NCBI GenBank assembly: GCA_015178975.1
Contig: WHVD01000009.1
Span: 310,001-374,000, forward strand
Length of the DNA stretch: 64,000 nt
Source: Hysterangium stoloniferum
Taxonomy: Eukaryota > Basidiomycota > Agaricomycetes > Hysterangiales > Hysterangiaceae
Direction: 5' to 3'
Part shown: positions 6,101 to 64,000 of the stretch, one piece after another
Layout: the number at the start of each line of letters is the position of its first letter
Position numbering within the stretch: the stretch's first letter is position 1
Translations under genes and position numbers: made by a program
Notes under the pieces: generated by a model
Told to the model about the DNA's origin: nothing
What the model saw: the letters and a program-made list of their open reading frames with translations, nothing else
Database searches by the model: none

Positions 6101-9100
6101 ACATCCAAGTGACCCTGTGCTGCTGCACCACCCAGTGCTGTCCCATAGAAACCCCCCTGGACATTGGGATCAGTACCATGGTCAAGCAGTGCTTGGACCA
6201 CATCCAAGTGACCCTCTGCTGCAGCACTACTAAGTGCTGTCCCATGGCCACCTCCCTGGACATTAGGATCAGAACCATGGTCAAGTAGTGCCTGGACCAC
6301 ATCCAAGTGACCCTTTGCTGCTGCACTACTAAGTGCTGTCCCATGGAAGCCCCCTGGGACATTGGGATCAGCACCATGGTCAAGCAGTGCCTGGACCACA
6401 TCAAAGTGACCCCTTTCTGCTGCACTACTAAGTGCTGTCCCATAGACACCCCCCTGGACATTGGGATCAGCACCATGGTCAAGCAGTGTCTGGACCACAT
6501 CCAAGTGACCCCCTTTTGCTGCACTATTCAGTGCTGTCCCATGGAAGCCCCCCTGGATACTGGGATCAGCACCATGATCAAGCAGTGCCTGGACCACATC
6601 CAAGTGACCATTTACTGCTGCACTATTAAGTGCTGTCCCATGGGCATCCCTCTGGACATTGGGATCAACACCACCATCAAGCAGTGCCTGGACCTCATCC
6701 TCATGACCCTGTGCTGCAGCAGCACTGCTAAGTGCTGTCCCATGGAAACCCCCCTGGACATTAGGATCAGCACCATGGTCAAGCAGTGCCTGGACCACAT
6801 CCAAGTGACCCTGTGCTGCAGCACTACTAAGTGCTGTCCCATGGAAAACCCCCTGAACATTGGGATCAGCACCATGGGCAAGCAGTACCTGGACCATATC
6901 CAAGTGACCCTTTGCTGCAGCATCACTAAGTGATGTCCCATAAAAACCCCCCTGGACATTAGGATCAGCACCATGGCAAAGCAGTGTCTGAACCACATCC
7001 AAGTGACCTCGTGCTACCACACCACCAAGCACTGTCTCATGATGACCCCCCTGGACATTTGGATCACCACCATGGAGAAGCAGTGCCTGAACCACATCCA
7101 AGTGACCCTGTGCTGCTGCACCACCAATTGCTGTCCCATGGAAACCCCCCTGGACATCAGGATTAACACCACCTTTTAATAGCACTGCTGTTACTTTGTA
7201 CAACCCATAGTATGCAGCAATCACTAATTGTGGGACTGGATATTTTCCCCAGCTCTCCTGCTTCCAAAATTCATATTGCTGGCTTCCCTGTTCAAACAGT
7301 TTCATTATTAGATTGTGATACACTTCCAATGGTTCACATCTACCAGCTCGTGCATGAGACACCCATTGTGTGGCACTGTATCCTGCCAAAGGATGGTCAT
7401 ATTCAAGATCTGTCCCACTTTTTATACAGGTCATTAAGGACTTTTGAAACTGAAGTAAATAGATCAAACACATTTTTGTCATGTGACTGTGTGCCACTTG
7501 TTCCTCAAGATGAAAGTTAGAAGGTGGTCCTCCCATTGAACTATCTATCATAAGATACTCTTTCACTGAAAAATGTGCCAATTTGATTGTCTCTACCAAA
7601 GTCAAATTAATACACTATTGCTATTTTTATTGCAAATAGGCAATACTAACCTTCTGACTGAAGGACAAGTCCAGCACAGACACCTAGGATATTTGTTGGA
7701 TCATTGTATACAGTGCGGGAATTGAAGGGAGGTTTTGAACCATCAATTATATAATCCATATTTATTCCAATGATTTGGGCCAATTCTTTGGCTTTCAAGG
7801 GCTGCAAAGAAAAGGCCAACCACTGTAAGAATTTCAATGCATTCTCTGTATGTTTCTTGGGAATCTTCAGTATCATCTTCCTGTAACTTCCAAACAACCC
7901 ATCTGGAATTGTATTCAGCTGCTTCTCTAGTTCCTCATCACTATGACAAGCTGAGAGCTCTTCAAGTTGCAATGCTACCCATCTGAACCTGAAAAATAGT
8001 AGAATAAGTCAATGCTGGAGATGACCAAATAGGAATATATCACTTACATCCCTTCAGCACGCTCATTAAGAGTTCTAAAGATATTATCAAGAAGATTTTC
8101 ATCTTTTGAGGAAAAAATGGTCTTGGATTGCAATTTGGCATAAATGTAGGTTTTAATATCATTATTTGCATGTTGTCTATGCAGAAACAGGTGTTCTGGG
8201 TTTAGATTATCCAATTCTCTTTGAATGGATACTTCTGGCCGAGTTGTTACTAGAATGTGTAGTCTTGAACTATTTTGACTGAGTAACTTGTTCAGCCACT
8301 TAATGACCTTTAGATATTCTGAGCATTCATCAAGGGCATCTAAAATGATGTACACCTGATCAAACATAGTGAGTAATTCACAAACTATCTTCTCAAGGTC
8401 TTTGAGAGATGGTTGCTGTGTGCCATTCCTATAGATCTGAGAAAGACATTTGGGAATATTAAAGCAGACTGAAGCTAGTTGTTTTATGAGAGATCTGATT
8501 AAATAGTGATGTGATTGAAAAGCTTCTTGTGAGTCTCTAGAGTCAAAAAAGAAATAGGCAAGAGCTTGTGATGAGTCATTTTCACAAAGACTTTGAATGT
8601 TAGCAATGATTGATGAACTGGAAATATGCATGTCAAAATTCAGCCAAATATGTTGCTCAAAAGTGTTACATAAACCCACCATAAGATTGTCTTTCCAGAT
8701 CCAGCTGGGGATTAAGCAGTAAGGCAGTGTAATCCAGAAAAGTCACCAAACATACAGATACCATAGATCCAAAGATATTGATTGACATCTTCTTTCCATT
8801 TTATAAACTCTGTGCTATTGAGGAACCAAACACCTGTATTTGTCATACATTGTTCTTGTGCTGCATTTAAGTTGCCTGATGGATCTGGGGCAGATAGCCA
8901 GTTATAAATATTTTGACGGTCCTTCTCAGTCTCTAAAGATTAATGTTACTTCAATAGATCCTCCCAGGTGTTAAAAACAATACCTGGATTGTTAAGTAAT
9001 TGATTTTGTCTGCCCAAAGATACATAGTGATCCTCCCAATTTTTAAGAATAGCAGATGGTGCCTTTTCAATCATTTGCAGTAGACGCTGCATAAGAACAT

Positions 9101-27056: not shown

Positions 27057-27852
27057 TTTGGAGCAAATAAACATTCGGAAATGGGGCGTCCCTACCTGTA
27101 TTCTCCATTAACGTAAGTTCCTTTCCCGTTTGACTTCATATTGCTGTAGGGTTTTGAAGAGTAATGGATTCCTAGTGTTTAATCCAGGTTCCATTGAGGG
27201 CCAACATAGTCACCGCTCTCGCACCTCCTGCATTCTGTCAAGGGTACTTAAGGCCGATGTTTATCCTTATACATCAGAAATCAATTAATGGCCCCCTGTC
27301 TCTCTCGGCTGGAGCGGTATGGATACTCCACATCCCTTCATAACTATGCTCACTATCTCGTAGATCCGAGAGGTGGAATTTGCATAGGAGTGTGGGGTTC
27401 TTGTTAGGGTCTTTTCACTGTTTGCCCTCGTGATTCCCATCACGGGAGGGCCGACCTAGGATCCGATACTCTCGTGCCAACTGGTTAGTAGATAGTTTAT
27501 CCATTGTCATTTGTTTGTCTGCAGACATCATATACAGCCATTAACTTGAGCTTAAGGTTTCGCTACCTATCTGACATCGTTTTACTTGTACTAGTAGGGT
27601 AATATGTTACTGTTATGAATATAGAGTTGCTGTTGGCTCTGTCATTTTTTGATATTCGTCTCCGATTTTGACTTCCTTGTTTTGGCCTTCCACTGCTACT
27701 TGCAGCTTCAAGTTCAAAAGGACGCAGTTAAAATGTACCCAACTCCGAGTCCAATCTGCCAGTAATAGCCTTCGAAGTTCAGACTTATACTTATAACCTG
27801 CGAACGGGTATTTAAAATACTCCCTTGAACTGAGTCGTTGACGCGAAACACC
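27057..27852. other. Intergenic, promoter of the PrpF-family gene at its right end
   Basis: About 800 bp. No gene recognised. An AT-rich TTTAAAATAC at about 27811 lies 40 bp before the next start codon and may be its core promoter. Confidence 0.4.
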
Positions 27853-29199
27853 ATGTCTCTATATAAGCGCAGTTTCACTAGAATAACACACCTGAATCCC
27901 GATCAAGCATTCCGAGCGAAGAGCATGACACGGCCTTCAAGCTCGAGCTCAACACCACCAAACCCTCTGCCAGCCACATTCATCCGTGGCGGAACCTCAA
28001 AAGGGATATTCATAAACCGCAAACACCTCCCCGTCTCCCGCTCAGAATGGGCCTCAATCTTCCTCGGAATAATGGGTTCTCCAGATCCAGTACATGCCCG
28101 CCAACTAAACGGCATGGGCGGGGGCGTATCATCGCTCTCAAAGATCATCGTTGTCGGCCCACCGTCGCCTTCTCAGGCCGTGCTGGGAATCGATGCGGAG
28201 TACACGTTTGCACAGGTCGGCATTAAGGATGCGGAAATTGATTATTGGGGTAATTGCGGGAATTTGTCGAGTGTTGCGGGGGTTTTTGCTGTCGATGAGG
28301 GGCTGTGTGTTCCCCGCCTCAAGTCGTCTATTTCTGGGGACTCAATCGGCACAGTGCGTTTATGGAACACCAATACTGACAAAGAAATCCATACCACATT
28401 CCCTGTGAGCGGTAATGACTCGCACGCAATTCCCTCGTTGGATTTAGAACAAGTATCTATCGCTGGTGTACCGGGCAAAGCATCCCAAATAATCCTCGAT
28501 TTTGTAAATCCCGCTGGAGCCAGGACTGGAAAACTTCTCCCGACCGGGAAGGCGGTTGATCAAATAACCATCCCTTCTAAAACAGAAAACAAAGGCGTGG
28601 CATTTACAGTATCCCTCGTCGACGCCACAAACCCCTCCGTGTTCGTCTCCTCCGAGGACATATTCGGCAGCATATTTCTCCCTAGCGAAGCTGCATATGT
28701 GCCAAATACGTCGACCCCTAATGAACTACTAGAAACAATCGAGCAAATCCGCAAAGCAGGCGCAGAGGCCATGGGGCTCGATCCTACAGCCCAGGCCCAG
28801 CCCAAAATTGCCATCATCGGATTGCCATCCCGAGATTCAGAGCCGTCCCCATCCCCAGAATCAGACGGCATCCCCGTTGACATGGAGGTGCAGGCCATGT
28901 CCATGGGCGTACTCCACCGCGCAATCCCAATGACAGTCGGACTGGGACTAGGCGTGGCCGCCGCCATCGAAGGCACGGTAGCGCATCGGATTGTCTCTCT
29001 GGCTCGTGCCCGCTACGGCGTCAGTGATTCCGGGGACATTGGGAGCGGTGAGAAGAAATTGAAGCCAGGCCTCGTACGAATCAGACATCCGAGCGGGGTT
29101 GTTGATGTAGGTGCGGAGTTTGCGCCGGATGGGAGTGTGACGAGTGCGAAGGTTGTAAGGACGGGGAGGCGGCTTATGAAGGGGGAGGTGTGGTGGTAA
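27853..29199 (+). CDS. PrpF-family isomerase (DUF453)
   Basis: Single exon, 448 aa, starting at the first in-frame ATG after the promoter. The family signature is complete: FIRGGTSKGIFI (Lys50), GSPDPVHARQLNGMGGGVSS, then YWGNCGNLSS with Cys135. Lys and Cys of these motifs are the catalytic pair proposed for bacterial PrpF, a member of the diaminopimelate-epimerase fold that isomerises methylaconitate in the 2-methylcitrate route of propionate breakdown. Later blocks include MGVLHRAIPMTVGLGLGVAAAI and VRIRHPSGVVDVGAEF. The N-terminal 35 residues are basic and Ser/Thr-rich and could target mitochondria. Fungal members are widespread but their substrates are not established. Confidence 0.9.
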   Translation: MSLYKRSFTRITHLNPDQAFRAKSMTRPSSSSSTPPNPLPATFIRGGTSKGIFINRKHLPVSRSEWASIFLGIMGSPDPVHARQLNGMGGGVSSLSKIIVVGPPSPSQAVLGIDAEYTFAQVGIKDAEIDYWGNCGNLSSVAGVFAVDEGLCVPRLKSSISGDSIGTVRLWNTNTDKEIHTTFPVSGNDSHAIPSLDLEQVSIAGVPGKASQIILDFVNPAGARTGKLLPTGKAVDQITIPSKTENKGVAFTVSLVDATNPSVFVSSEDIFGSIFLPSEAAYVPNTSTPNELLETIEQIRKAGAEAMGLDPTAQAQPKIAIIGLPSRDSEPSPSPESDGIPVDMEVQAMSMGVLHRAIPMTVGLGLGVAAAIEGTVAHRIVSLARARYGVSDSGDIGSGEKKLKPGLVRIRHPSGVVDVGAEFAPDGSVTSAKVVRTGRRLMKGEVWW

Positions 29200-40300: not shown

Positions 40301-40629
40301 AAAGAGCCAATCCCACAATTAGTGATTGCAGGACACAATGGATTGTACAAAGTATTAGCAGTGCTATTAGAAGGTGTTATGTATTTTATTAGTTTTCTAC
40401 CTTTTAAGTCCCCCAAAAGCCGAAATAGCCAAAATGGCTTGTGAAATGTACTTATATTGCGATGATAAAATTTGTATAAATATCTTTTAAATTTCGTTGA
40501 ATTTCTACAATTTATTTTACATTTTTATCTTAAATATTGAAGAAGTTATGAATTTATTCTTTTTTAACTAAATACTATCAAACCGGCCACCAGGCACTAA
40601 TTACACAACGCACGAGAAAATCATGTGAC

Positions 40630-40830
40630 AGTCGTCACAAAAAGGCGCGACGGTCACAAGGCGTGACGGTCACAAAGCGCGACAGTCACAAGGCGCGACG
40701 GTCACAAGGCGCGACGGTCACAAGGCGCGACGGTCACAAGGCGCGACGGTCACAAGGCGCGACGATCACAAGGCGCGACGGTCACAAGGCGCGACGGTCA
40801 CATAATGTGACAGTCACACGGCGCGATGAT
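40630..40830 (+). repeat. 16-bp GC-rich minisatellite inside LTR1 copy 1
   Basis: About eleven head-to-tail units of GGTCACAAGGCGCGAC and close variants. It is the counterpart of the 19-bp arrays in the other LTR1 copies. The open frame over it is an artefact of the repeat. Confidence 0.85.
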
Positions 40831-41089
40831 TACAAAGGCGCACGGATGACATACACGAAAGGCGCGGGAATAGATTACATCATCATGTATGCTATTGTAG
40901 AAAAAACCGGAAATTCCTGGAGCATTCCAGAAGCTTCCCCAGGAATAGCTAAATTAGGATAGTAATGATGTAATATGTCTCAAAAATGTCTCACATTTTA
41001 TTGTATATAAGGAGCTCTGCTCCAGCCGTGAAAATATAACTTATAACTTTTTATCCACCCACATCTGTGTGTTACTGCAGCAAGCAGGC

Positions 41090-41330
41090 TATTCCACCCC
41101 TATCAGGGCTGTTGGACTTTTAATTCCACCTCTATTTGAGTTGTTGGAAACCTTTGCCACCTCGGTTAGAGTTGTTGGCCCAAGTAGTTCACCTTGTCAC
41201 CTCAATCTGAGTTGTTGACTTATTTGTTCCCCCTTGCCACCTCTTAATTGAGTAGCTGGCTTTATTACTTTTTCTAACTTCTATTTAAGTTGTTGGAATC
41301 GTTGCCACCTCGGTTAGAGTTGTTGGCTAT
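41090..41330 (+). other. Array of seven covarying hairpins in LTR1 copy 1
   Basis: Seven units of form NYCA, C, CYC, 5-6 nt loop, GRG, 4 nt, TGRN. Lower stems include TCCA/TGGA, GCCA/TGGC and GTCA/TGAC. Upper stems include CTC/GAG, CCC/GGG and CTT/AAG. See copy 4 (59833-60106) for exact coordinates of each element. Confidence 0.7.
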
Positions 41331-43965
41331 CAACCAAGTAATAAATAAATTGTTTGTTTTATTGTTTGAAATTAGAATATAATTCTAATTTCTCCTGGTT
41401 TGGCTTATAATTAAATACTGAGAATATTCTTGCAGAATCATAAAGACTACATTAAGATTCTGATAAGTTAGTATCACAGTAGATCCAGTAGATTAATTTA
41501 AATAAAGCATATATTGCCAAATATTGTTTTATTCTATAGTTAATCTTTTGATCTGTTTATTAATATTTTTACTGTTTGATAAATAGTATAAAATATATAT
41601 AAACTAGCTAGAATCGAAGTTGAATCTAGTTTTGGAATCAGTAAATTGTTATTCATATTTTAGTGGTTGTTTTCACAGAAAAAGAACAAGCTTACATAAG
41701 CAGCTCTCAAAAACCTTCTTTGCGAAGTAGGGTGCATATATTCAAGTAAACTCTTGACTTCAGGGGTTCTAAGTCCATTTAGACTGCCACTGATTAATAT
41801 CAAATACTTAAATTATTTTACCTTGTTGTGAATTGAGTATTTGCACACTTTGATAGAGCATTGGACTCCTTTTTCCAGAAAATAATATTAAAATAAGTCT
41901 AATACATTACAGAAGGTGGTGTTGACCCAAATATCCAGGGAGGTTTCTGGGGGACAGCACTTAATGGTGCAGCAGCACATGGTCACTTGGATGCGGTCCA
42001 GACACTACTTGCCCATGGTGCTAATCCCAATTTCCAGGGGAGTAACCATGGGACAGCACTTAGTAGTGCAGCAGCAAAGGGTCACTTGGATGTGGTCCAG
42101 GCACTACTTGACCATGGTTCTGATCCTAATGTCCAGAGAAGTGGCCATGGGACAGCACTTAGTAGTGCTGCAGCAGAGGGTCACTTGGATGTGGTCCAGG
42201 CACTGCTTGACCATGGTGCCAATCCCAATGTCCAGGGGGGTTTTTATGGGACAGCACTTGGTGGTGCAGCAGCACAGGGTCACTTGGATGTGGTCCAGAC
42301 ACTACTTGCCCATGGTGTTGATGCCAATGTCCAGGGGGGTTTCTATGGGACAGCACTTGGTGGTGCAGCAGCACAGGGTCAGTTAGATGTGGTCCAGACA
42401 CTGCTTGCCCATGGTGCTGATGCCAATGTCCAGGGGGGTTCTAATGGGACAGCACTTGGTAGTGCAGCAGCACAGGGTCACTTGGATGTGGTCCAGACAC
42501 TACTTGCCCATGGTGTTGATCCCAATGTCCAGGGGGGTTTCTATGGGACAGCACTTGGTAGTGCAGCAGCACAGGGTCACTTGGATGTGGTCACGGTACT
42601 ACTTGCCCATGGTGCTGATACCAATGTCCAGGGGGGTTCCTATGGGACAGCCCTTGGTGGTGCAGCAGCACAGGGTCACTTGGATGTGGTCCAGGCACTG
42701 CTTGCCCATGGTGCTGATTCCAATATCCAGGGAGGTTTTTATGGGACAGCACTTGGTGGTGCAGCAGCACAGGGTGACTTGGATGTGGTCCAGACACTGC
42801 TTGCCCATGGTGCTGATTCCAATATCCAGGGAGGTTTTTATGGGACAGCACTTGGTGGTGCAGCAGCACAGGGTCACTTGGATGTGGTCCAGACACTACT
42901 TGCCCATGGTGTTGATGCCAATGTCCAGGGGGTTCCTATGGCTCAGCACTTGGTGGTGCAGCAGCACAGGGTCAGTTAGATGTGGTCCAGGTACTGCTTT
43001 CCCATGGTGTTGATTCCAATATCCAGGGAGGCTTTTATGGGACAGCATTTGGTGGTGCAGCAGCACAGGGTCACTTGGATGTGGTCCAGGCACTGCTTGA
43101 CCATGGTGCTGATCCTAATGTCCAGGGGGGTTCCTATGGGACAGCACTTGGTGATGCAGCAGCACAAGGTCACTTGGATATGGTCCAGGCACTACTTGCC
43201 CATGGTGCTGATCCCAATGTCCAGGAGAGTTCCCATGGGACAGCCCTTGGTGGTGCAGCAGCATGAGGTCACTTGGATGTGGTCCAGGCACTGCTTGACC
43301 ATGGTGCTGATCCCAATGTCCAGGGGGGTTCCTATGGGACAGCACTTTGTAGTGCAGCAGCACAGGGTCATTTAGATGTGGTCCAGGCACTGCTTTCCCA
43401 TGGTGCCAATCCTAATGTCCAGGGGGGTTCTTATGGGACAGCACTTGGTGGTCCAACAGCACAGGGTCACTTGGATGTGGTCAAGGTACTACTTACCCAT
43501 GGTGTGGATACCAATGTACAGGGGGGTTCCTATGGGACAGCACTTGGTGGTGCAGCAGCACAGGGTCACTTATATGTGGTCCAGGCACTGCTTTCCTTTG
43601 GTGCTGATCCCAATATCCAGGGAGGTTTTTATGGGACAGCACTTGGTGGTGCAGCAGCACAGGGTCACTTGGATGTGGTCCAGACACTACTTGCCCATGG
43701 TGTTGATCCCAATGTCCAGGGGGGTTTCTATGGGACAGCACTTGGTGGTGCCGCAGCACAGGGTCAGTTAGATGTGGTCCAGGCACTGCTTGCCCATGGT
43801 GTTGATTCCAATATCCAAGGAGGCTTTTATGGGACAGCACTTAGTGGTGCAGCAGCATGGGATCACTTAGATGTGGTCCAGACACTACTTGCCCATGGTG
43901 CTGATATCAATGTCCAGGAGGGTTCCTATGGGACAGCACTTGGTGATACAGCAGCACAGGGCCAC

Positions 43966-46189
43966 TGTGATGTATTAGCCTTATTTTAATACTATCTTCT
44001 GAAAAAGGAGTCCAATGCTCTATCAAAATGTGCAAATACTCAATTCACTACAAGGTAAAATAATTTGAGTATTTGATATTAATCAGTGGCAGTTTGAATA
44101 GACTTAGAACCCCTGAAGTAAGAGTTTACTTTGAATATATGTACCCTACTTCACAAAGAAGGTTTTGAGAGCTGCTTTTGCAAGCTGTTCTTTTTCTGTG
44201 AAAACAATTACTAAAATATGAATAACAATTCACTGATTCCAAAACTAGATTCAACTTTGATTCTAGCTAGTTTATATATATTTTATACTATTTATCAAAC
44301 AGTAAAAATATTTATAAACAGGTCAAAAGATTAGATATAGAATAAAACACTATTTGGCTAATATATGCTTTATTTACACTAACCTACCAGATCTACTGTG
44401 ATATTAACTTATCAGGATCTTAATGTAGTCTTAAGGATCTTGCAAGGATATTCTCAGTATTTATTGATGCTCAAAACCGGGTAGAAATTAGAAATGTATT
44501 CCTAATCTCAACAATGATAACCAACAACCAACTAGGTGACAAGTTTATGGGATTAATACCAGAAGCTCAACTAGAGGTGGCAGGGAATCCTGATTGGTCA
44601 GAAGCTCAACTAGAGGTGACAAGGGATCCTGATTGATGCCAGAAGCTCAACTAGAGGTGGCAATAAACTGCTTGCTGCAGTGACACACAGATGTGGTGTA
44701 AATGGGTGTTAGGATACATACAGGGTGGGTTTCCAGAGAAACCTGCAGAATATCCAGTAGGACTTGGCTTCAGCTTATAGGCTGCACCCTCACTAGATCA
44801 TGTTGTCCAATTTCAGACCGGCAGATGGGAATCCCAGGGAGTCTGGGCAGGGGTCATGGGATGAGGGGTTGTAGGTCAGAGGTTGTGGGTTGTGAGTCGA
44901 GGTAGGTGAGAAAGATAGATGCACCAGAGCCCGTGGGTTCCAACTAGTGTGAGCGGTGTGATTCAAGTAGGAGTTTAGAGTGGAAAATGTATTAGATTAC
45001 TGGGGGGAATCTAAGCCAATTTTCTGACTGGATTGTATGTACAACATCTGCCAGTTTAAATAGACTGTGGAGTGAATGTCATACTGAATCCAGTAATGAT
45101 GAAACAAAATGAGCAAACCATAAAATGGGAATAGTAAACACCAAATTGGTGTTAGGAATGGGATGGAACAGAGTGGAGTCCAAATAGTGATAAATCATAA
45201 ACCATAATGGGAAACAGAGCGGGAGCAGAGTCCAAATCGTGACAGGTCATTTGACTAAAATGGGAATGGGGCTCTGTTAGAGGGATGACGGGTTTTCTGA
45301 GCGGGGTCCAGTGACTGATGCATGGGATGAGATCGGATATAGACAGAGACGGAGTCCGGTGGGTTTTCTGGTGACTGAAACACAACGTAACGAAGTCAAA
45401 CATAGACAAGGCTGACGTACGGAGTCTGGCGGGAATTCGGTAAACTGATAATGGGTGCGTATAGGGCATGGGTGCATATAAGTTAGTGCCCAGAGTCCGG
45501 TGGGAATTCCGGTCATAACAATGGGTTGATAAGATGATAAGATGTTCTATTCAAGCTGGAGCTGAGCTCCTTATATACATTTTAGTCCAAGACATTTTAG
45601 AAGATTCTAGAAGATTGAATGATGTCATTTAGAATTTTCTAGAATTTTCTAAAGTATTACAGAAGATTCTAACTACTTCTAAGACATTATAGAATGTTCT
45701 TGGCATAATAGAACATTCTAGAATTTTATAGAATATTCTACAATATTCTATCTACTTGTATATATTATTAACTATTTTACCTGGAAACTGCTGGAATATT
45801 CCAGGAGTTTCTGCTACTTTTCATTGTTAGCATATATGATGACATAATGCTCTCATGCCTGTGCATGTATGACACCCTTCATGCCTTGTGACTGTTGTGT
45901 GCCTTGTGACAACTGTCACTCATTGTGATGATTTTCCTGCACATTGTGTAATAAGTTCCAGGTGACCAGTGTAAATGACATATTAATCAAAAAAGAAAAA
46001 AAGATAGAAATTCTGTAGCTTGCTCAATTTATAAGATAAAAATACAAAATAAATTGCATAATTTCAAGATAATCAAGACAATATTGTACAGTTTTATTGT
46101 CACGATATAAATACATTTAAGAACCTTTGTTAAGAATTTCATTTTGGGGAAATTGTAAAAAATAGAAAAAACCTCAAAAATACATAACA
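43966..46189 (-). mobile_element. Solo LTR, family LTR1 (copy 2), antisense, with a nested LTR2
   Basis: On the minus strand it begins TGTTATGTATTTTTG and ends TACATCACA. Its flanks are GCCAC (43961-43965) and GTCAC (46190-46194), a TSD with one change, lying inside an ankyrin unit (AGGGTCACTTGGATG). Its 2224 bp include a nested LTR2 (44707-45520 plus a 5-bp duplication), leaving about 1405 bp. The GC-rich minisatellite is reduced to a few degenerate units (about 45860-45960). Hairpin units are seen on the minus strand at about 44520-44660. Confidence 0.88.
44707..45520 (-). mobile_element. Solo LTR, family LTR2 (copy c), nested in LTR1 copy 2
   Basis: An 814-bp unit with ends TGTTAGGATA and GTCATAACA in plus orientation and exact TSD ATGGG (44702-44706, 45521-45525). 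It is the reverse complement of the LTR at 221-1029 with moderate divergence, so it is inserted on the minus strand. Because it sits inside LTR1 copy 2, it is the younger insertion. Confidence 0.9.
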
Positions 46190-46870
46190 GTCACTTGGAT
46201 GTGGTCCAGGCACTACTTGCCCATGGTGCTGATCTCAATGTCCAGGGGGAGTTCCCATGGGACAGCCCTTGGTGGTGCAGCAGCATGGGGTCACTTGGAT
46301 GTGGTCCAGGCACTGCTTGACCAGGGGAGGTTCCTATGGGACAGCACTTGGTAGTGCAGCAGCACAGGGTCACTTAGATGTGGTCCAGGCACTGCTTGAC
46401 CATGGTGCCAATCCCAATGTCCAGGGGGGTTCTTATGGGACAGCACTTGGTAGTGCAGTAGCACAGGGGCACTTGGATGTGGTCCAGGCACTGCTTGCCC
46501 ATGGTGCTGATCCCAATGTCCAGGGGGGTCCTGATGGGACAGCACTTGGTGGTGCAGCAGTAGATGGTCACTTGGATGTGGTCCAGGCACTACTTGCCCA
46601 TGGTGCTGATCCCAATGTCCAGGGGGGGGTTCTAATAGGACAGCACTTGGTGGTGCAGCAGCAGCACAGGGTCACTTGGATATGGTCCAGGCATTGCTTG
46701 CCCATGGTGCTGATGCCAATGTCCAGGGGGTTCTGATGGGACAGCACTCGGTGGTGCAGCAGTACAGGGACACTTAGATGTCATCCAGGCACTGCTTGAC
46801 CATTGTGCCAATCCTAATGTCCAGGGGGGGTTCCTATGGGACAGGACTTGGTGGTGCAGCAGCACAGTGA
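46190..46870 (+). pseudogene. Continuation of the disrupted ankyrin array
   Basis: Seven or so 99-bp ankyrin units in several frames, belonging to NLR copy 2 and separated from the rest by LTR1 copy 2. Small insertions or deletions in G runs (for example near 46625, 46730 and 46825) break the frame. The array ends abruptly near 46866. Confidence 0.85.
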
Positions 46871-48267: not shown

Positions 48268-48879
48268 GTATATTCTGATTTCACACTCACATTTTCTGTT
48301 AATCATGCCTCTGAGAAAAAAAGATGCCAAGCCAAGTGGTGAAGCAGAATCTTCCACTCTCAAGTTGGTATGTATTTCTAGGTTTTTTCCAAATTTTTAA
48401 ACAATTTCCCCTAACAAATTGCAAAAACAAATATTTAAATGTACTTATATTGTGACGATAAAATTGTACCATATTTGCTTGATTTATCTTGAATTTATAC
48501 AATTTATTTTGTATTTCTATCTTATACATTGAGCAAGTTATTAAATATTTACCTTTTATTCTTTTTTGATTAAGATGTCGGCGACTCAGCGCTTATTCAC
48601 AACGCGCGAGTAATTATGTGACATTCACATAACATTTCAAACTCCGACGCCGACAAAACGCAATGTGAAATAATCGTGCATAATCAAGGCAATATTTATA
48701 TATTTATATTATTATAATAAAATATTATATTTATAACTAACTAAAAATAAATATAATAATTATATAATAATATAAAACCGGCCACTGTGCTTATTACACA
48801 GTGCGCGGGAAAATCGTCACAATGAGTGACAACCGTCACAACAGGTGACAGTTGTCACAAGGGCATGTGACTGTCACAG

Positions 48880-49475
48880 AGGCGCACAACTGTCACAGAG
48901 GCGCGCGACTGTCACAGAGGCGCGCGACTGTCACAGAGGCGCGCGACTGTCACAGAGGCGCGCGACTGTCACAGAGGCGCGCGACTGTCACAGAGGCGCG
49001 CGACTGTCACAGAGGCGCGCGACTGTCACAGAGGCGCGCGACTGTCACAGAGGCGCGCGACTGTCACAGAGGCGCGCGACTGTCACAGAGGCGCGCGACT
49101 GTCACAGAGGCGCGCGACTGTCACAGAGGCGCGCGACTGTCACAGAGGCGCGCGACTGTCACAGAGGCGCGCGACTGTCACAGAGGCGCGCGACTGTCAC
49201 AGAGGCGCGCGACTGTCACAGAGGCGCGCGACTGTCACAGAGGCGCGCGACTGTCACAGAGGCGCGCGACTGTCACAGAGGCGCGCGACTGTCACAGAGG
49301 CGCGCGACTGTCACAGAGGCGCGCGACTGTCACAGAGGCGCGCGACTGTCACAGAGGCGCGCGACTGTCACAGAGGCGCGCGACTGTCACAGAGGCGCGC
49401 GACTGTCACAGAGGCGCGCGACTGTCACAGAGGCGCGCGACTGTCACAGAGGCGCGCGACTGTCACAAAGGCGCA
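48880..49475 (+). repeat. 19-bp GC-rich minisatellite, about 30 units, in LTR1 copy 3
   Basis: Almost perfect tandem units of CTGTCACAGAGGCGCGCGA. The homogeneity implies recent expansion. All three forward frames are open through it and encode the same 19-residue cycle (57 nt is three units), an artefact, not a protein. Confidence 0.93.
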
Positions 49476-49924
49476 CGATGGTCACAAGACGTGACAGTCA
49501 CAAGACCCGAAGGATGTCATACACGTGCACAGGCGCGAGAGCATTATGTCATCATATATGCTACTACAGGAAAAACCGGAAATCTCTGGAACATTTCAGT
49601 GGCTGCCAAAGGAATAGTAGTTAATAGGTACTAATAAGAGATAGAATATTGTAGAATATTCTATAAGTTTCCAAAATGTTCTATTATGCCAAGAATATTC
49701 TATAGCATCTTAGAAAGTAGTTAGAACCTTCCATAATGCTCTAGAAAATTCTAGAAAATTCTAAATGACATCATTCCTTTCAGAATGACATCATTCAATC
49801 TTCTAGAATCTTCTAAATGTCTCAGACTTAAAATGTATATAAGGAGCTCAGCCCCAGCCTTGAAATGAAGAACATCTTTACTACATTTTATCAGTCATAT
49901 CAGTGTGCCACTGCAGCAAGCAGT

Positions 49925-50195
49925 TTATTCCACCCCTTGTTGGGCTGTTGGACAAATAAATACAAATACTTAGTCACCTCTAGTTGAGCTGCTGACCTAA
50001 GTTATCTCAGGATTCCTTTGTCACCTCTTGTTGAGCTTCTGACAATAATCCTACCAATCAGGATTCTCAGTCACCTCTTATTGAGTAATTTGACTGATTA
50101 TCACATTGCAAATAATCCTTGTTACATTTCTCGTTATTTGTACTCTAAAACTTCAGTCACCTCTTGTTGAGTAATTTGATTGTTTATTACATTAC
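49925..50195 (+). other. Array of five covarying hairpins in LTR1 copy 3
   Basis: Five units of the same design as in copy 4, with lower stems TCCA/TGGA, GTCA/TGAC and GTCA/TGAT and upper stems CCC/GGG or CTC/GAG. Loops are TTGTT, TAGTT or TTATT; the 3' internal-loop strand is CTGT, CTGC, CTTC or TAATT. Confidence 0.7.
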
Positions 50196-51250
50196 AAATA
50201 ATCCCTGTTCTATTTGCTTATTTATTGTGAATCAGTAAAGCATATTCACATAAACAAATACTGAGAATATCCTTTTGCAAGATCCTAAGATTACATTAAG
50301 ATCCTGATAAGTTAGTATCACAGTAGACCTTGTAGGTTAGTGTAAATAAAGCATATAAGCCAAATAGTGTTTTATTCTATATCTAATCTTTTGACCTGTT
50401 TATAAATATTTTTACTGTTTGTTAAATAGTATATAAACTAGCTAGAATCGAAGTTGAATCTAGATTCTGAATCAGTGAATTGTTATTCATATTTTAAGAA
50501 CATATTTTCACAGAAAAGGAACAAGCTTGCACAAGCAGCTCTCAAAACCTTCTTTGCGAAGTAGGGTGCATATATTCAAGTAAACTCTTGACTTCAGGGG
50601 TTCTAAGTCTATTCAGGCTGCCACTGATTAATATCAAATACTTAAATTATTTTACCTTGCAGTGAATTGAGTATTTGCACATTTTGATAGAGCATTGGAC
50701 TCCTTTTTCAGAAAATATTATTAAAGTAAGGCTAATACATCACACAAGTCTCCTTTCCTGTATACAGCCCGAGCTACTCTGAGAACCCTGCAACCAGGAA
50801 CCTCCAAAGAATCCCACTTTGTGGAAATTACTGGCAATGCTGAAGAAGTTACTGAAGCAACCCAACCTGAAGCACCTGAAGGGGATAACAATCAATCAGC
50901 TCCGGAACCTGAACCCGAGGATGGTGACCAACCCATACCTCAGGCCAGTGGTTCTAAGAAATCTGCAAAACAAAAACTGGTTCTCGATCTCGATGAGACA
51001 TGGGAATTGTTCTCAGGTACCCTAGGATCCCTTAACAAATTCCTTAAAAGCAATACCAAGGAAAAAGAACCTGGGCAAACCTGACTCAACAAACCCGAAC
51101 TGTTTACCAGCTCAAACCCGAAGAAAGTGCTGACATTTCTTATGCAATGTCGATTCAACTTTTGGGACCGCCCGGCTGCATTTGCAATGGATGACCAAAA
51201 GGTAAATTTTGCACTCTCTTAGCTTAAGGACTCTGCAGCAGTGTGAGGTA

Positions 51251-55947: not shown

Positions 55948-56420
55948 TGTGAGGAGTATGCTTTTACCAGAGTTTCATTGTGGTAAAACACTCCTTTTAT
56001 TTCATTTATATTTTACATATTCTATTCATATTTTACTATCTTTCATATTCTTCGAATATCGCATATTTCATTAGTTCAAAGCATTGTGTATACTTGTGGG
56101 TGCACTCAGCACCAATTAGAACTCAGACACACTTAACCCAAGAACCACCACTCGTAAGACACAAACTAGGTCTACTACAAGCGGTGATCAGGGTAACGTG
56201 TCAGCTACCACATAGGTAGCATTATCTGAACTACTGAATACTTCTGGCCTTGAACTATAACAGTCGAGGCCTCCACTCGAACCATCGCACTCGTTGACTC
56301 ATTCGTCATCTCGTGCTCTTTCTCTCACTTCCTCTTATATTGCACCGAATAGGTCAATATCCTTCCTTTCTACTCATTTCTTCGAATATAGAACGGTCAG
56401 AACTTCCACCACTCTTCACA
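55948..56420 (+). repeat. 5' LTR of element B
   Basis: TGTGAGGAGTATGC to CTCTTCACA. It contains TTTTACC/GGTAAAA as an imperfect terminal hairpin (perfect over 10 bp in the 3' LTR, where one base differs), a GCTACC/GGTAGC hairpin at 56204-56220, and two bulged hairpins at 56246-56271 and 56337-56360. Confidence 0.88.
56246..56360 (+). other. Two bulged hairpins in the element B 5' LTR
   Basis: At 56246-56271: lower GGCCTTG/CGAGGCC (one G-U), bulge A, ACT/AGT, loop ATAAC. At 56337-56360: lower ATATTG/CAATAT, bulge C, ACC/GGT, loop GAATA. Both recur in the 3' LTR at 62109-62134 and 62200-62223. Confidence 0.65.
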
Positions 56421-58997: not shown

Positions 58998-59328
58998 CTG
59001 TTCTTCTAAGCCTTTCAACTTACAGGTTCAGCACACACTGTCATGTATTTTAAAGGTTTTTTCATTTTTCGCAATTTCCCCGAAAACGAAATTCTTAATA
59101 AAGGCTCTAAAAATGTACTTATATCACTATGGTAAAATTGGACAGTATTCCTTTGAATTATCTTGAAATTATGCAAATTATTTTGTATTTTTATCTAAAA
59201 AACTGAGTTTTATTCTTTTTTAACTATATATCTTCAAACGGGCCACCTGGCGCTTATTACACAATGCGCGGGAATAGTCATCACAACAAGTGACCGTCGT
59301 CACAACGAGTGACCATCGTCACAATGCG

Positions 59329-59520
59329 TGACAGTCACACGGGCGCGCGACAGTCACACGGGCGCGCGACAGTCACACGGGCGCGCGACAGTCACACGGG
59401 CGCGCGACAGTCACACGGGCGCGCGACAGTCACACGGGCGCGCGACAGTCACACGGGCGCGCGACAGTCACACGGGCGCGCGACAGTCACACGGGCGCGC
59501 GACAGTCACAAGGGCGCACG
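59329..59520 (+). repeat. 19-bp GC-rich minisatellite, about ten units, in LTR1 copy 4
   Basis: Units of AGTCACACGGGCGCGCGAC, nearly perfect. The sequence differs from the array in copy 3 (CACGGG in place of CAGAGG), so each copy homogenised separately. Confidence 0.9.
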
Positions 59521-59832
59521 TGTGTCACACGCGCACTAGTGCGGGAATATTATGTCATACATTATGTCATTTGAGAATATTAAGTCATATGTTATGTCAT
59601 CTGGGAATATTATGTCATACATTATGTCATCATATATGCTACAGTAGAGAATGGCAGAAATGTCTAAAACATTCCAAGTAAAATAGCTAAAATAGGATAG
59701 AAATAATTCAATATGTCTCTAAATGTCTCACATCTCAGTGTATATAAGGAGCTCTGCTCCAGCCATGAAATACAACCAATTTTATCAACCCATTTACACC
59801 ACATTTGTGTGTCACTGCAGCAAGCAGGCTAA

Positions 59833-60106
59833 TCCACCCCAATCTGGGCAGTTGGACATCTAATTCCACCTCTATCAGAGCTATTGGAAACCCTTGCCAC
59901 CTCTATCAGAGTTGTTGGCCCAATAAGATCCCTTGTCACCTCAATCTGAGTTGTTGACTGATCTTTGTTCCCCCTGTCACCTCAATCTGAGTTGTTGACT
60001 ATTGTTCCCCCTTGCCACCTCTTAATTGAGTAGCTGGCTTTATTACTTTTTCTAACTTCTATTTAAGTTGTTGGAATCCGTTGCCACCTCGGTTAGAGTT
60101 GTTGGC
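59833..60106 (+). other. Array of eight covarying hairpins in LTR1 copy 4
   Basis: Units at 59833-59856, 59864-59889, 59896-59919, 59935-59958, 59976-59999, 60014-60038, 60050-60076 and 60083-60106. Each has a lower stem of 4-5 bp, one unpaired base 5' (C, once A), a 3-bp upper stem, a 5-6 nt loop and four unpaired bases 3'. Lower stems: TCCA/TGGA, TTCCA/TGGAA, GCCA/TGGC, GTCA/TGAC twice, GCCA/TGGC, TTCTA/TGGAA (one G-U), GCCA/TGGC. Upper stems: CCC/GGG, CTC/GAG six times, CTT/AAG. Both strands of each stem change together. Confidence 0.75.
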
Positions 60107-60717
60107 TATCAACCAAGTAATAAATAAATTGTTTGATTGTTTGAAATTAGAATATAATTCTAATTTCTCCTGGTTTGGCTTATAGTTAAATACTGAGAAT
60201 ATTCTTGCAGAATCATTAAGACTACATTAAGATCCTGATAAGTTAGTATCACAGTAGACCTTGTAGGTTAGTGTAAATAAAGCATATATTAGCCAAATAG
60301 TGTTTTATTCTATATCTAATCTTTTGACCTGTTTATAAATATTTTTACTGTTTGATAAATAGTATAAAATATATATAAACTAGCTAGCATTGAAGTTAAA
60401 TCTAGCTTTGGAATCAGTAAATTGTTATCCTTATTTTAGTAGTTGTTATCACAGTAAAAGAACAAGCTTGCACAAGCAGCTCTCAAAACCTTCTTTGCGA
60501 AGTAGGGTGCATATATTCAAGTAAACTCTTGACTTCAGGGGTTCTAAGTCTATTTAGGCTGCCACTGATTAATATCAAATACTTAAATTATTTTACCTTG
60601 TAGTGAATTGAGTATTTGCACATTTTGATTGAGCATTGGACTCCTTTTTCAGAAAATAATATTAAAATAAGCCTAATACATTACACACACTGTTCAACAA
60701 GGTCTTTCCTCAGGGTT

Positions 60718-60747
60718 AAAGCTTCGCACTGAAATAGTCGAAGCTTT
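60718..60747 (+). other. Bulged hairpin in element B interior
   Basis: Lower stem AAAGCTTCG/CGAAGCTTT (9 bp), bulge C, ACT/AGT, loop GAAAT, 28 bp after the nested LTR1. The pair at 58972 and 60718 differ by compensated outer pairs and the bulge base. Confidence 0.68.
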
Positions 60748-60749
60748 GC

Positions 60750-61809
60750 CTTTCTGACCTTCGCAACTTACAGCGTGCAACATTTTTCAACAAGGTATCC
60801 ATGGGCAACAGATCTTCGATTTCACCTCCACCTGGTGCTCTTAGCATCTTCGATGCCTACAAAATACGCTCATTGCTCGCAGTCAAATCCACCCTTTCCT
60901 CTCCACCCCTCCACTTTACCTTCATTGGCAGTCGACTAGCTACAAAAAGGTTCAATAACTCGCAGGGCAACACCTAGGTCAGATACGTCTGGACAGAACT
61001 ATGCGACCCAACCTCAGTGCTGTATTTGGGTCCATCATCACAATTGTACTGAACTCAGTCAATTTCGTGATTTTTTCTTTTTCCTCCGGACTCGCCTACC
61101 TACTTGAAGCATTACTGGACACTTTCTAGACCTGCCATGGGCTAGACCTTTCGGGAACACAGACTGCAACCTAACTGTGCACAATAATGGTTAATTTGCG
61201 AGATCGTGGTGGAATCACAATATCACAAAGTGGGGGGCGGGATAGGGGGTATAGGGTATACATCCTGGCATGCTGCTAGGTCCCATAGACTAGCAGCATG
61301 GAAAGATCCTAATCCCGAGTCTTACACTATCTCGTCACAGCAAAGCATCATAAACCTCCTCCGGTACTCATTTAAGGAGGAGGAGATTCCAATAGACTCT
61401 AATGATAGCTTACCCTCCTAACCCCAAGATGCACTGCCCAATGAGTTACATGACAGTCTGTCCGCCTACAGGACATCTACTATGAGGAATGCCTCGTGTC
61501 CTGGAAGGAGACAATGTGGCAGTGTCTAGAAGGCTATCAAGTAGTCCATTTGCTGTTTGAGGACTGAAGGAGTGCTCGACTAGGGACTGAAGGAAAAGAA
61601 TGGATCTATTTTTTTTTTTTTTTCCCTTCCCTTCCCTCCCTTTTTCCACATCGACATCTTTCCTTACTGCCCATAAACCCACCAACCTCTCTTCGAATAC
61701 TGGGGTCTTGGCACCTTGCAGTTTGGGGGGCTCCACACAGGACACCTGGGGGGCATCCCCGAAGCTTTCCAGAACTTCGTATAGCACATCCCTTCGAACT
61801 GGGGGGCAC
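60750..61809 (+). other. 3' interior of element B
   Basis: About 1 kb with short coding-like segments in changing frames (SISPPPGALSIFDAYKIRSL near 60805; SYTISSQQSIINLLRYSFKE near 61320) broken by stops. A further bulged hairpin lies at 61042-61064 (AATTG/CAATT, bulge T, ACT/AGT). A poly-T run is at 61609-61623 and a G-rich tract (CTGGGGGGCAC) abuts the 3' LTR and may serve as polypurine tract. No recognisable pol domain. Confidence 0.5.
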
Positions 61810-62283
61810 TGTGAGGAGTATGCTTTTACCACAGTTTCATTGTGGTAAAACACTCCTTTTATTTCATTTATATTTTACATATTCTATTCATATTTTACTA
61901 TCTTTCATATTCTTCAAATATCGCATATTTCATTAGTTCAAAGCATTGTGTATACTTGTGGGTGCACTCAGCACCAATTAGAACTCAGACACACTTTAAC
62001 CCAAGAACCACCACTCGTAAGACACAAACTAGGTCTACTACAAGCGGCGATCAGGGTAACGTAACAGCTACCACATAGGTAGCATTATCTGAACTACTGA
62101 ATACTTCTGGCCTTGAACTATAACAGTCGAGGCCTCCACTCGAACCATCGCACTCGTTGACTCATTCGTCATCTCGTGCTCTTTCTCTCACTTCCTCTTA
62201 TATTGCACCGAATAGGTCAATATCCTTCCTTTCTACTCATTTCTTCGTATATAGAACGGTCAGAACTTCCACCACCCTTCACA
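61810..62283 (+). repeat. 3' LTR of element B
   Basis: Nearly identical to 55948-56420. Differences include ACCACAG for ACCAGAG near the start, which completes a 10-bp TTTTACCACA/TGTGGTAAAA hairpin, and ACCCTTCACA for ACTCTTCACA at the end. Confidence 0.9.
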
Positions 62284-62288
62284 CCCGG

Positions 62289-64000
62289 TGGGGATCACAT
62301 TGTCCCTAAGGTTGACTACCAGTATATATACATCTGGATGTTGGAGGAGTCTCTTAACGGGATCACTTGGAATTCTTCATTTGCGTATTTTACCTTAAGG
62401 GGTCGGTTAAGGTGAAATCAGAGGAGGCTTGATAAGATGGTTTTGGAAGTGCTCTACCCTTATGGTGATTCCATCCAGGTACCCGATTTGCCCATCTCCA
62501 CAACCAGTTCGTTCGTTCGTACCCTGAATGGGTCTCCCAACACTCGTTTCCTTCGTTCACTCAATCGTCCCATTATTTTGCAAGATTTCCCATTGGATAT
62601 AAGGACGCAAGTCGCAGAACGTCTTCAGGAAAAGGGAATGGAAATCTGCACTCCCCTCTATCAACCTCAACCTCATCGACCTTTGAATACGGCCGAAATC
62701 GAGAGAGGTATCGCAACGGAACCTAGCCCTACCCCCCATCAGGGAATCCCCCGCTCTCGCATCACGTTCGAACAAATTCCGAGTAATCCTAACATCGGCA
62801 ATCACCAAGCTGCGACTAGGAATCGATCAGTCGCCAACAGGGGTCGACCGTATTTCTCTACTGCATTCACTGAGGGTATAGCTGGTCAAGTTGCTGGTCG
62901 AGGATCGCTGAATCCAGTTGATCCCCGCCATTCCCTGCCGAACTCCTCGAACCCCTTTTTGCCAGCAGGAGGACCCCCTAGTAATTCATCCAGGAGTTCT
63001 AGTGCCTCAAGCTATGGAGGAAATTCGGGACGTGGGGGGCGTTACGGTAGAGTACCTAACTCTCTCTTTCAAACTCCGATGCAGCCTCGAGTCAGTGCGC
63101 CTATCGATGACTTACCTAAGGATAAAAGGATCGCTCTTAACACCAACGACATCAAGATAAAATGGTCAGACCTTCCCGAATACAATGGAACTCAGTCCAA
63201 GGCATTGGATTACATCATGGATATTATGAGTCTCTCGGAGATCTCAGACTCCATGAGCACACTGTTGGGAGTCGCTCTGCCAAGACGACTTACCGGCGAT
63301 GCCAAGATCTGGTGGAGCACCCTAGACCGTGAACATTGCACTGAATTCAGTCGATCTCACGGATTGTTTCTTTGGGGTATCGTAAAATGATTACTTGGAA
63401 CTCGTTGGTGCGAATCCTTAGCTCTAGAATGGGAAGCCATGAAATTTTGACAAATCGGTCACAATCGTGAGACACCCATTCATTACATTCAGCGGAGGGT
63501 CAAGCTCTATCGATTCCTGTACGGGTTCCACCAAAACCAGAAGGATGAAACGCGCAGACTCATCCTGACGCTGCCCACGGAATGGCTTTACCTTCTACAG
63601 GGACAACCTATCAACGACATCATGAGCCTGCAGACTTATGCGAACAATTTACAAGAGGCGTTGATTAACGCTTGGGTTCAAACACATCGAGAGCGTTATT
63701 GGTTCCAAAAGCCTAGAGTCATGATCGCCGAGCAAGATGAGTCAGATCCTTGGCATGAGGAAGAACACTCTGGAGGAATCGACCCCACTAACCGAGGTCA
63801 TGTCCTCCTCGGCAAACTCAAAGATAAAACGGTCCCTAGGAGATCGAACGCTAAGCAGGGTAAGAAACACAGCAAGTTCTTTTTCGAACGAAGTGACAAG
63901 AAAAGCATTGCCAAACCTCCGAAGGAGTGTTGGATTTGTGGGAGTTTAGAGCATTTCAAGATCAACTGCCCCCATGCGGTGTAGAGAGTTCAACCGGAAA
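62289..64000 (+). pseudogene. Gag of element A, 3' part, with zinc knuckle; runs off the window
   Basis: Continues the frame broken at 55947. It reads through LRGRLR to a TGA at 62413-62415, then MVLEVLYPYGDSIQVPDLPI and a long Pro/Ser/Arg-rich linker. A conserved core follows: IKWSDLPEYNGTQSKALDYI and WSTLDREHCTEFS. Further TGAs occur at 63388-63390 and near 63449. It ends with CWICGSLEHFKIN plus Cys, a CCHC zinc knuckle (C-x2-C-x4-H-x4-C) at about 63928-63975, and a TAG. Stops fall where arginine (CGA) is plausible. No protease or polymerase is seen before the window ends. Confidence 0.78.

What the first reader, a model, noticed from the sequence alone, without database searches (positions are those of the whole stretch)
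59833..60106. Tandem array of covarying hairpins in a fungal LTR
Seen directly: eight consecutive units in LTR1 copy 4, seven in copy 1 (41090-41330), five in copy 3 (49925-50195) and some in copy 2 (minus strand) fold to one plan: 4-5 bp lower stem, C opposite four unpaired bases, 3 bp upper stem, 5-6 nt loop. Lower stems switch between GCCA/TGGC, GTCA/TGAC, TCCA/TGGA and TTCCA/TGGAA; upper stems between CTC/GAG, CCC/GGG and CTT/AAG, always in paired fashion. That is covariation expected of selected RNA structure, not of simple repeat decay. The arrays start 80-100 bp after a TATA-like site, so they would be in the leader and/or 3' end of the transcript. Role is inference: Gag-binding/packaging, dimerisation, or control of reverse transcription or translation.
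Basis: partly seen in the sequence, partly recalled or inferred. Interest (0 to 1): 0.88.

Follow-up and report, generated by a model that had tools for sequence, protein, structure and literature searches.

The report
Hairpin array in mushroom retrotransposon leader
A jumping gene in a mushroom genome carries, near the start of its RNA, a row of small RNA hairpins whose two sides have changed together during evolution, so the folded shape itself is probably useful to the element, perhaps for packing its RNA.

Summary
A covariance model of one 24-nt hairpin gives 21 window hits at E<=0.02, all in the four LTR1 copies and sense to their TATA boxes. LTR1 is a true LTR: TG..CA ends, 5-bp target duplications, and 18 correctly oriented pairs of LTR/PBS-like and PPT/LTR junctions 4.7-7.4 kb apart. 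One interior opened encodes Gag and protease but no RT; a longer one has an open RT frame. The window copies are solo LTRs.

A tree-aware test on 589 distinct units puts three stem pairs first among 820 column pairs; the summed score of all seven stem pairs beats 300 of 300 simulations, but only one pair passes alone. From 50 nt after the TATA box to the LTR end, 43 LTRs hold 16 ATG against 716 expected, with an edge at the TATA box: the array lies in a scanned leader.

Function is inferred: multivalent Gag recognition first, translation control the main rival. Single hairpins are weak, the whole array folds no better than shuffles, and conservation outside this genome could not be tested.

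The parts
59039..60685 (+). LTR1 copy 4, a solo LTR (TG..CA, 5-bp duplication CACAC)
   Evidence: Ends and duplication:
59326..59517 (+). GC-rich 19-bp minisatellite in the U3 part
59741..59747 (+). TATA box TATATAA; ATG frequency collapses within 50 nt after it
59768..60685 (+). ATG-free leader part of the LTR (last ATG at 59765-59767)
59797..59817 (+). Hairpin 0, same plan: CA-C-CAC..GTG-TCAC-TG, read by eye in this copy
   Evidence: the same type in other loci
59815..59827 (+). Short hairpin CTGC-AGCAA-GCAG in the anchor just before the array
   Evidence: anchor 441 exact copies in the genome, reversed control 1; stem pattern in 57 of 59 rows
59833..59856 (+). Hairpin 1 (TCCA/TGGA, CCC/GGG)
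   Evidence: 30.8 bits
59865..59888 (+). Hairpin 2 (TCCA/TGGA, CTC/GAG)
   Evidence: 29.7 bits
59896..59919 (+). Hairpin 3 (GCCA/TGGC)
   Evidence: 36.6 bits
59935..59958 (+). Hairpin 4 (GTCA/TGAC)
   Evidence: 35.2 bits
59976..59999 (+). Hairpin 5 (GTCA/TGAC)
   Evidence: 35.2 bits
60014..60038 (+). Hairpin 6 (GCCA/TGGC, 6-nt loop)
   Evidence: 22.7 bits
60050..60076 (+). Hairpin 7 (TTCTA/TGGAA, CTT/AAG), divergent; not found by the model
   Evidence: read; the minimum-energy fold of this stretch is -6.6 kcal/mol
60083..60106 (+). Hairpin 8 (GCCA/TGGC)
   Evidence: 33.8 bits
60143..60167 (+). A+T palindrome after the array (GAAATTAG..CTAATTTC)
   Evidence: pattern in 29 of 59 rows
40375..41911 (+). 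LTR1 copy 1, solo, duplication GAAGG; array 41093-41327
43966..46189 (-). LTR1 copy 2; flanks GTGAC/GTGGC (4 of 5); another LTR nested in it; array 44558-44661
48539..50744 (+). LTR1 copy 3, solo, duplication CAAGT; array 49929-50180

Best explanation
LTR1 is the LTR of a recently active Ty3/Gypsy-type retrotransposon of an agaricomycete. Its RNA begins just after the TATA box and runs, apparently unspliced, through about 0.9 kb of LTR and (in the one copy seen) 0.3 kb of further leader to the gag ATG. In this AUG-free leader lies a tandem array of 2-15 copies of one small RNA hairpin kept by selection on its fold. The array grows, shrinks and shuffles by unit duplication while pairing is kept. 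Most likely mechanism (inferred): each hairpin is a weak site for the element's own Gag, whose conserved CCHC knuckle reads the C / YNNY internal loop between two short stems; many copies in a row give avidity, so that Gag picks this RNA for assembly. Shown: LTR identity, covariation of the stems taken together, Gag with knuckle. Strongly indicated by ATG loss but without RNA data: leader position. Inferred: that Gag is the binder and packaging the purpose.
For: Full-length C1 element with 5-bp duplication, PBS-like stretch and PPT; 26 and 31 such junctions, controls 0, forming 18 pairs. In both elements whose two LTRs I compared, the array regions are identical (595 of 595 and 547 of 547 bases). 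Stem pairs L2, U2 and L1 rank 1, 2, 3 of 820 column pairs; summed score of the seven stem pairs 799 against a tree-simulated maximum of 377 in 300 runs. 96.4% of cells paired, against at most 48.2% when slid and 0 of 500 shuffles. On branches shared by three or more loci, 9.3 double changes end in Watson-Crick pairs against 2.5 that do not, and changes to sense G-U outnumber changes to A-C 13.2 to 5.6; over all branches the latter two are 42 and 46, as for neutral decay (means of 20 draws). ATG: 16 found, 716 expected in 43 leaders, edge at the TATA box. The internal 3' strand is YNNY in 55 and the opposite base C in 63 of 69 recurrent units. Knuckle residues invariant in 8 aligned proteins.
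Against: Nothing here tests binding, packaging or transcription. Only L2 passes E<0.05 alone; U1 ranks 77th and L3, L4 and U3 hardly vary. On the shared branches, single changes that break a pair (5.6 A-C and 10.7 other) still outnumber those to G-U (13.2). Shuffles reach as many pair types as observed in 494 of 500. Hairpins are weak and the array is no more stable than shuffles. Frequent units have a T-T mismatch at the outer pair. The model finds no such hairpin in LTR2 or the other LTR type of the window, so such elements do without it. No relative outside this genome could be examined.
Confidence: 0.45

Rival explanations
1. Translation control: the array slows or meters scanning ribosomes, or binds a protein that does, so that the same RNA can switch from translation to assembly.
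For: The array sits in a long AUG-free leader upstream of gag, which scanning must cross; single hairpins are weak enough to be crossed.
Against: Simple scanning drag would not need a conserved C / YNNY internal loop and conserved inner stem pairs; with ATG almost absent there is hardly a uORF to regulate.
Confidence: 0.25
2. DNA-level cause: short palindromes duplicate by slippage and are kept perfect by template switching or as protein sites on DNA, without RNA selection.
For: Unit number and order differ between copies; imperfect palindromes can be corrected by template switching (recalled). The antisense strand folds no worse than the sense strand.
Against: The internal loop is asymmetric and conserved; in lineages that transposed, sense G-U is commoner than A-C (13.2 to 5.6); the array lies in a region that ATG loss marks as a transcribed leader.
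Confidence: 0.13
3. Dimerisation or RNA-RNA contact through the loops.
For: Many loops per molecule; one recurrent loop, TTAATT, is a palindrome.
Against: Other common loops (TAGTT, AATCT, TATCA, TTGTT) hold no palindrome, and loop sequence varies widely.
Confidence: 0.07
4. Shared descent only: a few unit types that arose by chance are counted many times.
Against: The null was simulated on the tree and none of 300 simulations reached the stem total; 77 cores seen in two or more loci give the same three top ranks.
Confidence: 0.06

Closest known systems
Ty3 of yeast and its leader RNA (PMC11381356, PMC4974528; found passages only)
   Same: Gypsy-type element with Gag and LTRs; the end of the LTR1 polyprotein matches Ty3 Gag-Pol (7q5b, E 4.9e-16) and integrases. 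Cis signals are described near the 5' end of the Ty3 RNA.
   Different: Ty3 5' UTR is 193 nt; LTR1 has about 1.2 kb with a tandem array of one hairpin. The word 'tandem' has 0 occurrences in both papers.
Retroviral packaging signals with several stem-loops, such as those of murine leukaemia virus (recalled)
   Same: Several hairpins in the leader; proposed binder Gag.
   Different: There a few different stem-loops (recalled); here up to 15 copies of one unit, the number differing between copies. Binding not tested here.
LTR elements derived from small RNA genes: Cassandra, Helenus, Ajax (PMC10886601, search listing and start of abstract only)
   Same: Structured RNA sequence inside an LTR.
   Different: Cassandra has a 5S rRNA-like sequence; the LTR1 array matches no Rfam family.
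Retrozymes with hammerhead ribozymes (PMC4918200, search listing and start of abstract only)
   Same: RNA motif carried by an LTR-type element.
   Different: No Rfam ribozyme match in 59000-60750, and LTR1 elements encode Gag.

Membership tests
LTR retrotransposon | Direct terminal repeats with TG..CA ends | tested here: met
   C1 element: both LTR ends seen, array regions identical
LTR retrotransposon | 4-6 bp target duplication | tested here: met
   41 of 59 rows exact 5 bp (rows are not all separate places); full-length C1 copy GTCTC
LTR retrotransposon | Polypurine tract before the 3' LTR | tested here: met
   AGGGGATTT before TGTTATGTATTT at 31 places, control 0
LTR retrotransposon | Primer-binding site after the 5' LTR | tested here: inconclusive
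   ATTGGTGGACG follows the LTR at 26 places, control 0; no tRNA with the matching acceptor pattern was found (an intron or mismatch would hide it)
Ty3/Gypsy | Gag with CCHC, protease, RT, integrase | tested here: inconclusive
   Pieces met, but in two copies: L192 has protease (26.7 bits, Pfam cut-off 28.2), a CCHC motif (Pfam model far below cut-off; residues invariant in 8 proteins) and a stretch matching Ty3 Gag-Pol and integrases by sequence, without a Pfam integrase match; RT in L193 from another copy
Ty3/Gypsy | Order protease-RT-integrase | tested here: inconclusive
   Protease then integrase-like stretch in L192, which lacks RT; in the longer copy RT is placed only by position
Solo LTR | One LTR with its own target duplication, no internal part | tested here: met
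   Window copies 1, 3, 4 exact, copy 2 with 4 of 5
DNA transposon with TGT..ACA ends | No LTR pair, PBS or PPT | tested here: not met
   18 pairs of LTR junctions, C1 copy with LTR pair
Packaging signal | Bound by Gag and needed for RNA incorporation | not testable with these tools
   Needs binding and particle experiments
Known RNA family (Rfam 15) | Match at or above a family's gathering score | tested here: not met
   Three weak hits in 59000-60750, all below the gathering scores and none in the array

The most novel reading that the evidence does not exclude
A retroelement has built its Gag-recognition region from tandem copies of one hairpin: a repeat-made packaging domain whose valency changes by unit duplication between copies and can be read out from genomes. 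It would be a new architecture for a retroelement leader.
Probability: 0.3. Interest if true: 0.78.

Novelty: new variant of a known kind. Interest (0 to 1): 0.6.

Why it matters
A 2024 paper says that the cis signals for RNA packaging in Ty3 are not precisely defined (PMC11381356, passage). Here many natural variants with 2-15 copies of one unit exist in one genome, with paired changes that name the fold. That makes the question of what the hairpin binds directly testable with short RNAs. The ATG-free zone is also a simple way to place transcript starts in LTRs without RNA data.

Tried and rejected
DNA transposon: considered because no copy of the first sample showed an internal part and because some fungal DNA transposons end in TGT..ACA (PMC12730594, passages); rejected when LTR pairs with junctions were found. 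Spans between one 5' and one 3' end of up to 10.6 kb looked like autonomous elements: 7 of 10 opened have exact duplications, among them all six of 3.7-10.6 kb. The one read inside (L181) is a solo LTR1 with another Gypsy element inserted near its 5' end. Known RNA: no Rfam match. Global stability: no signal. Relatives in viral contigs: none. Hairpins in the 5.85-kb interior L192: none. Primer tRNA: not found. Literature: no description of a tandem hairpin array in a fungal LTR among the listings; these are word searches of open-access papers only.

For one search, units with more than 3 mismatches to the motif or without 8-nt flanks were left out and identical rows collapsed (1329 kept, 589 distinct); the divergent CTT/AAG type stayed misaligned there. 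For one search, units with more than 2 mismatches were left out (473 rows). Model R1 uses 32 units chosen by hand among those listed at least twice.

Full report
1. Observation. The window (C544:310001-374000 of a 111-Mb assembly) holds four LTR1 copies. I read the array regions and built a covariance model from 32 hand-picked hairpin units. It gives 21 hits at E<=0.02 in the window, in just those four arrays, all sense to the TATA box; the next hit has E 0.88. One unit in each of copies 4 and 1 is a divergent type that I read by eye. The plan is 5'-NYCA-C-NNN-loop-NNN-YNNY-TGRN-3'. The lone base is C in 63 of 69 recurrent units; the opposite strand is 3-5 nt, 4 nt in 56 of 69. A segment just upstream of the array follows the same plan with a CAC/GTG stem.

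2. Sample. An exact 15-mer just before the array occurs 441 times in the genome, reversed control 1. I hold 94 of the first 100 listed places; six at the end of the list were not fetched. Added are best hits of three LTR queries, 30, 18 and 20 places, and two pattern hits. Choice of places by the 15-mer does not depend on pairing, but the sample is only part of the family. 161 loci carry arrays, 149 of them distinct; some loci are the same place. They have 2-15 strict units each, arrays cut by a locus end included, with median spacing 41 nt.

3. Covariation. Units were cut out by closeness to a fixed motif that leaves the two outer pairs free and treats compensated and uncompensated changes alike. 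On 589 distinct rows I compared a G statistic with average-product correction against 300 simulations in which the inferred substitutions were redealt along the same tree (my own script, modelled on R-scape as I recall it). Of 820 column pairs the first three are stem pairs: L2 (E 0.003), U2 (0.19), L1 (0.82). U1 is 77th; L3, L4 and U3 hardly vary (ranks 160, 405, 271). The sum over all seven is 799, null mean -6, maximum 377. With the 77 cores seen in two or more loci the ranks are again 1, 2, 3 and the sum 159 against a maximum of 91. By a single-pair threshold of 0.05 only L2 passes, so the case rests on the joint result. A first pass on 343 rows was weaker: best E 0.155 and 0.085, and with a tree from all columns only 5 of 12 double-change branches ended in a standard pair (18 of 27 with a tree from unpaired columns). 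Named-structure counts on the 32 hand-picked units: 96.4% of cells paired, 0 of 500 shuffles as high, slid versions at most 48.2%; but the number of further pair types is reached by 494 of 500 shuffles.

4. Strand. Over all branches, changes from Watson-Crick to sense G-U and to A-C are alike (42 and 46). On branches shared by three or more loci, which must have transposed, they are 13.2 and 5.6, with 10.7 to other mismatches. That is a modest sign of a fold in sense RNA. Folding energies do not help: the stretch is not more stable than shuffles on either strand, and the antisense z is slightly lower.

5. What LTR1 is. Ends are TG..CA with an imperfect 11-bp inverted repeat. 41 of 59 rows have an exact 5-bp duplication around a single LTR; rows include the same place twice in a few cases (L001 and window copy 4, L019 and L062, L031 and L047, and a second 3' row in L010). 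In the part of the flank comparison that I saw (its output was cut), the only pairs at true ends were loci of one place, so I considered a DNA transposon. A full-length element then turned up on C1: duplication GTCTC, LTR followed by AATTGGTGGACG, a polypurine tract before the second LTR. Genome-wide there are 26 LTR/PBS-like and 31 PPT/LTR junctions (controls 0) that form 18 pairs in the right order and strand, 12 about 5.77-5.82 kb apart, 4 shorter, 2 longer. Against this stand 641 exact 3' ends, control 19. These exact-match counts are lower bounds, but they say that most copies are solo LTRs. In both elements whose two LTRs I compared (C1, C26), the array regions are identical, so insertion was recent. 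The model finds no hairpin in the C1 interior.

6. Proteins. The interior opened (L192, one of the 12 of common size) has a 1174-codon frame with a CCHC motif, a protease (26.7 bits, Pfam cut-off 28.2) and an end that matches Ty3 Gag-Pol and solved integrases by sequence, though no Pfam integrase model. Neither of its two frames over 110 codons matches RT. The longer copy opened (L193, a 1.3-kb piece of one of the 2) has an open 433-codon frame with RT (84 bits). The knuckle C, C, H, C and protease DSG are invariant in 8 aligned proteins. A host gene in the window points to the same group: 63-65% to Sphaerobolus, Gautieria and Clathrus.

7. Leader. In copy 4 there is no ATG from 59775 to 60685 (expected 16.7). 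In 42 LTR rows measured from the anchor to the LTR end, 35 have none and 7 have one (expected mean 15.6), while the antisense triplet CAT is present 6-16 times. A profile over 43 LTRs drops from 2.2 ATG per 50 nt just before the TATA box to 0-0.1 from 50 nt after it, up to the LTR end. ATG is the most depleted of the 64 triplets, 16 against 716; the lowest without a CpG after it is AAC at 0.53. The 292 nt from PBS to gag in L192 also have none (expected 3.4). This is what a scanned 5' UTR looks like. It puts the transcript start between the TATA box and the array and argues against splicing of this region. It is not unique to LTR1: from LTR2 to its Gag-like frame there are 2 ATG (expected 6.9), and the Gypsy element in L181 has none for about 380 nt after its TATA box region.

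8. Mechanism. The array is in the leader upstream of gag, multiplied, kept in shape, and present in both size classes of full-length element examined. The element makes a Gag with one knuckle. I judge multivalent Gag recognition the likeliest use (0.45), translation control next (0.25). That the fold is real and selected in RNA I hold at about 0.85. Poly(A) signals AATAAA are commonest about 375 and 525 nt from the TATA box, mostly after the array, so the array may also lie in R and hence at both RNA ends; this is inference.

9. Known or new. Passages on Ty3 give a 193-nt 5' UTR and say that packaging sequences are not precisely defined (PMC11381356). A review on Ty1 and Ty3 packaging has neither 'hairpin' nor 'tandem' in its text (PMC4974528). 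I found no report of such an array in the searches named under Tried and rejected. I file it as a new variant of a known kind: a structured retroelement leader, here made of tandem copies of one unit.

Noticed in passing
window 3250-7171, 41917-43973, 46190-46867: 99-bp tandem repeats; they look like ankyrin repeats of 33 residues (recalled, not scanned). LTR1 copies 1 and 2 sit beside or inside them.
   Followed up: no
window 55948-56420 and 61810-62283: 474-bp direct repeats, 98.3% identical (LTR2), on either side of LTR1 copy 4. A Gag-like region with a weak CCHC match (19.4 bits, cut-off 20.8) follows at 62437-63984.
   Followed up: partly
window 44707-45521: A stretch 86.7% identical to 220-1029, similar to the LTR of the Gypsy element in L181, nested inside LTR1 copy 2.
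   Followed up: partly
window 48869-49486, 40642-40845, 59326-59517: GC-rich minisatellite with units of 16-19 bp in the U3 part of three LTR1 copies, about 10 to 32 copies of the unit.
   Followed up: no
L192 and L193; 12 of 18 junction pairs share one interior size, about 5.8 kb. The one opened shows no RT yet has identical LTR arrays, so such copies may use RT supplied by longer ones.
   Followed up: partly
window 27838-29199: Host gene of the PrpF family (PF04303), best named relative Sphaerobolus stellatus at 64%.
   Followed up: partly
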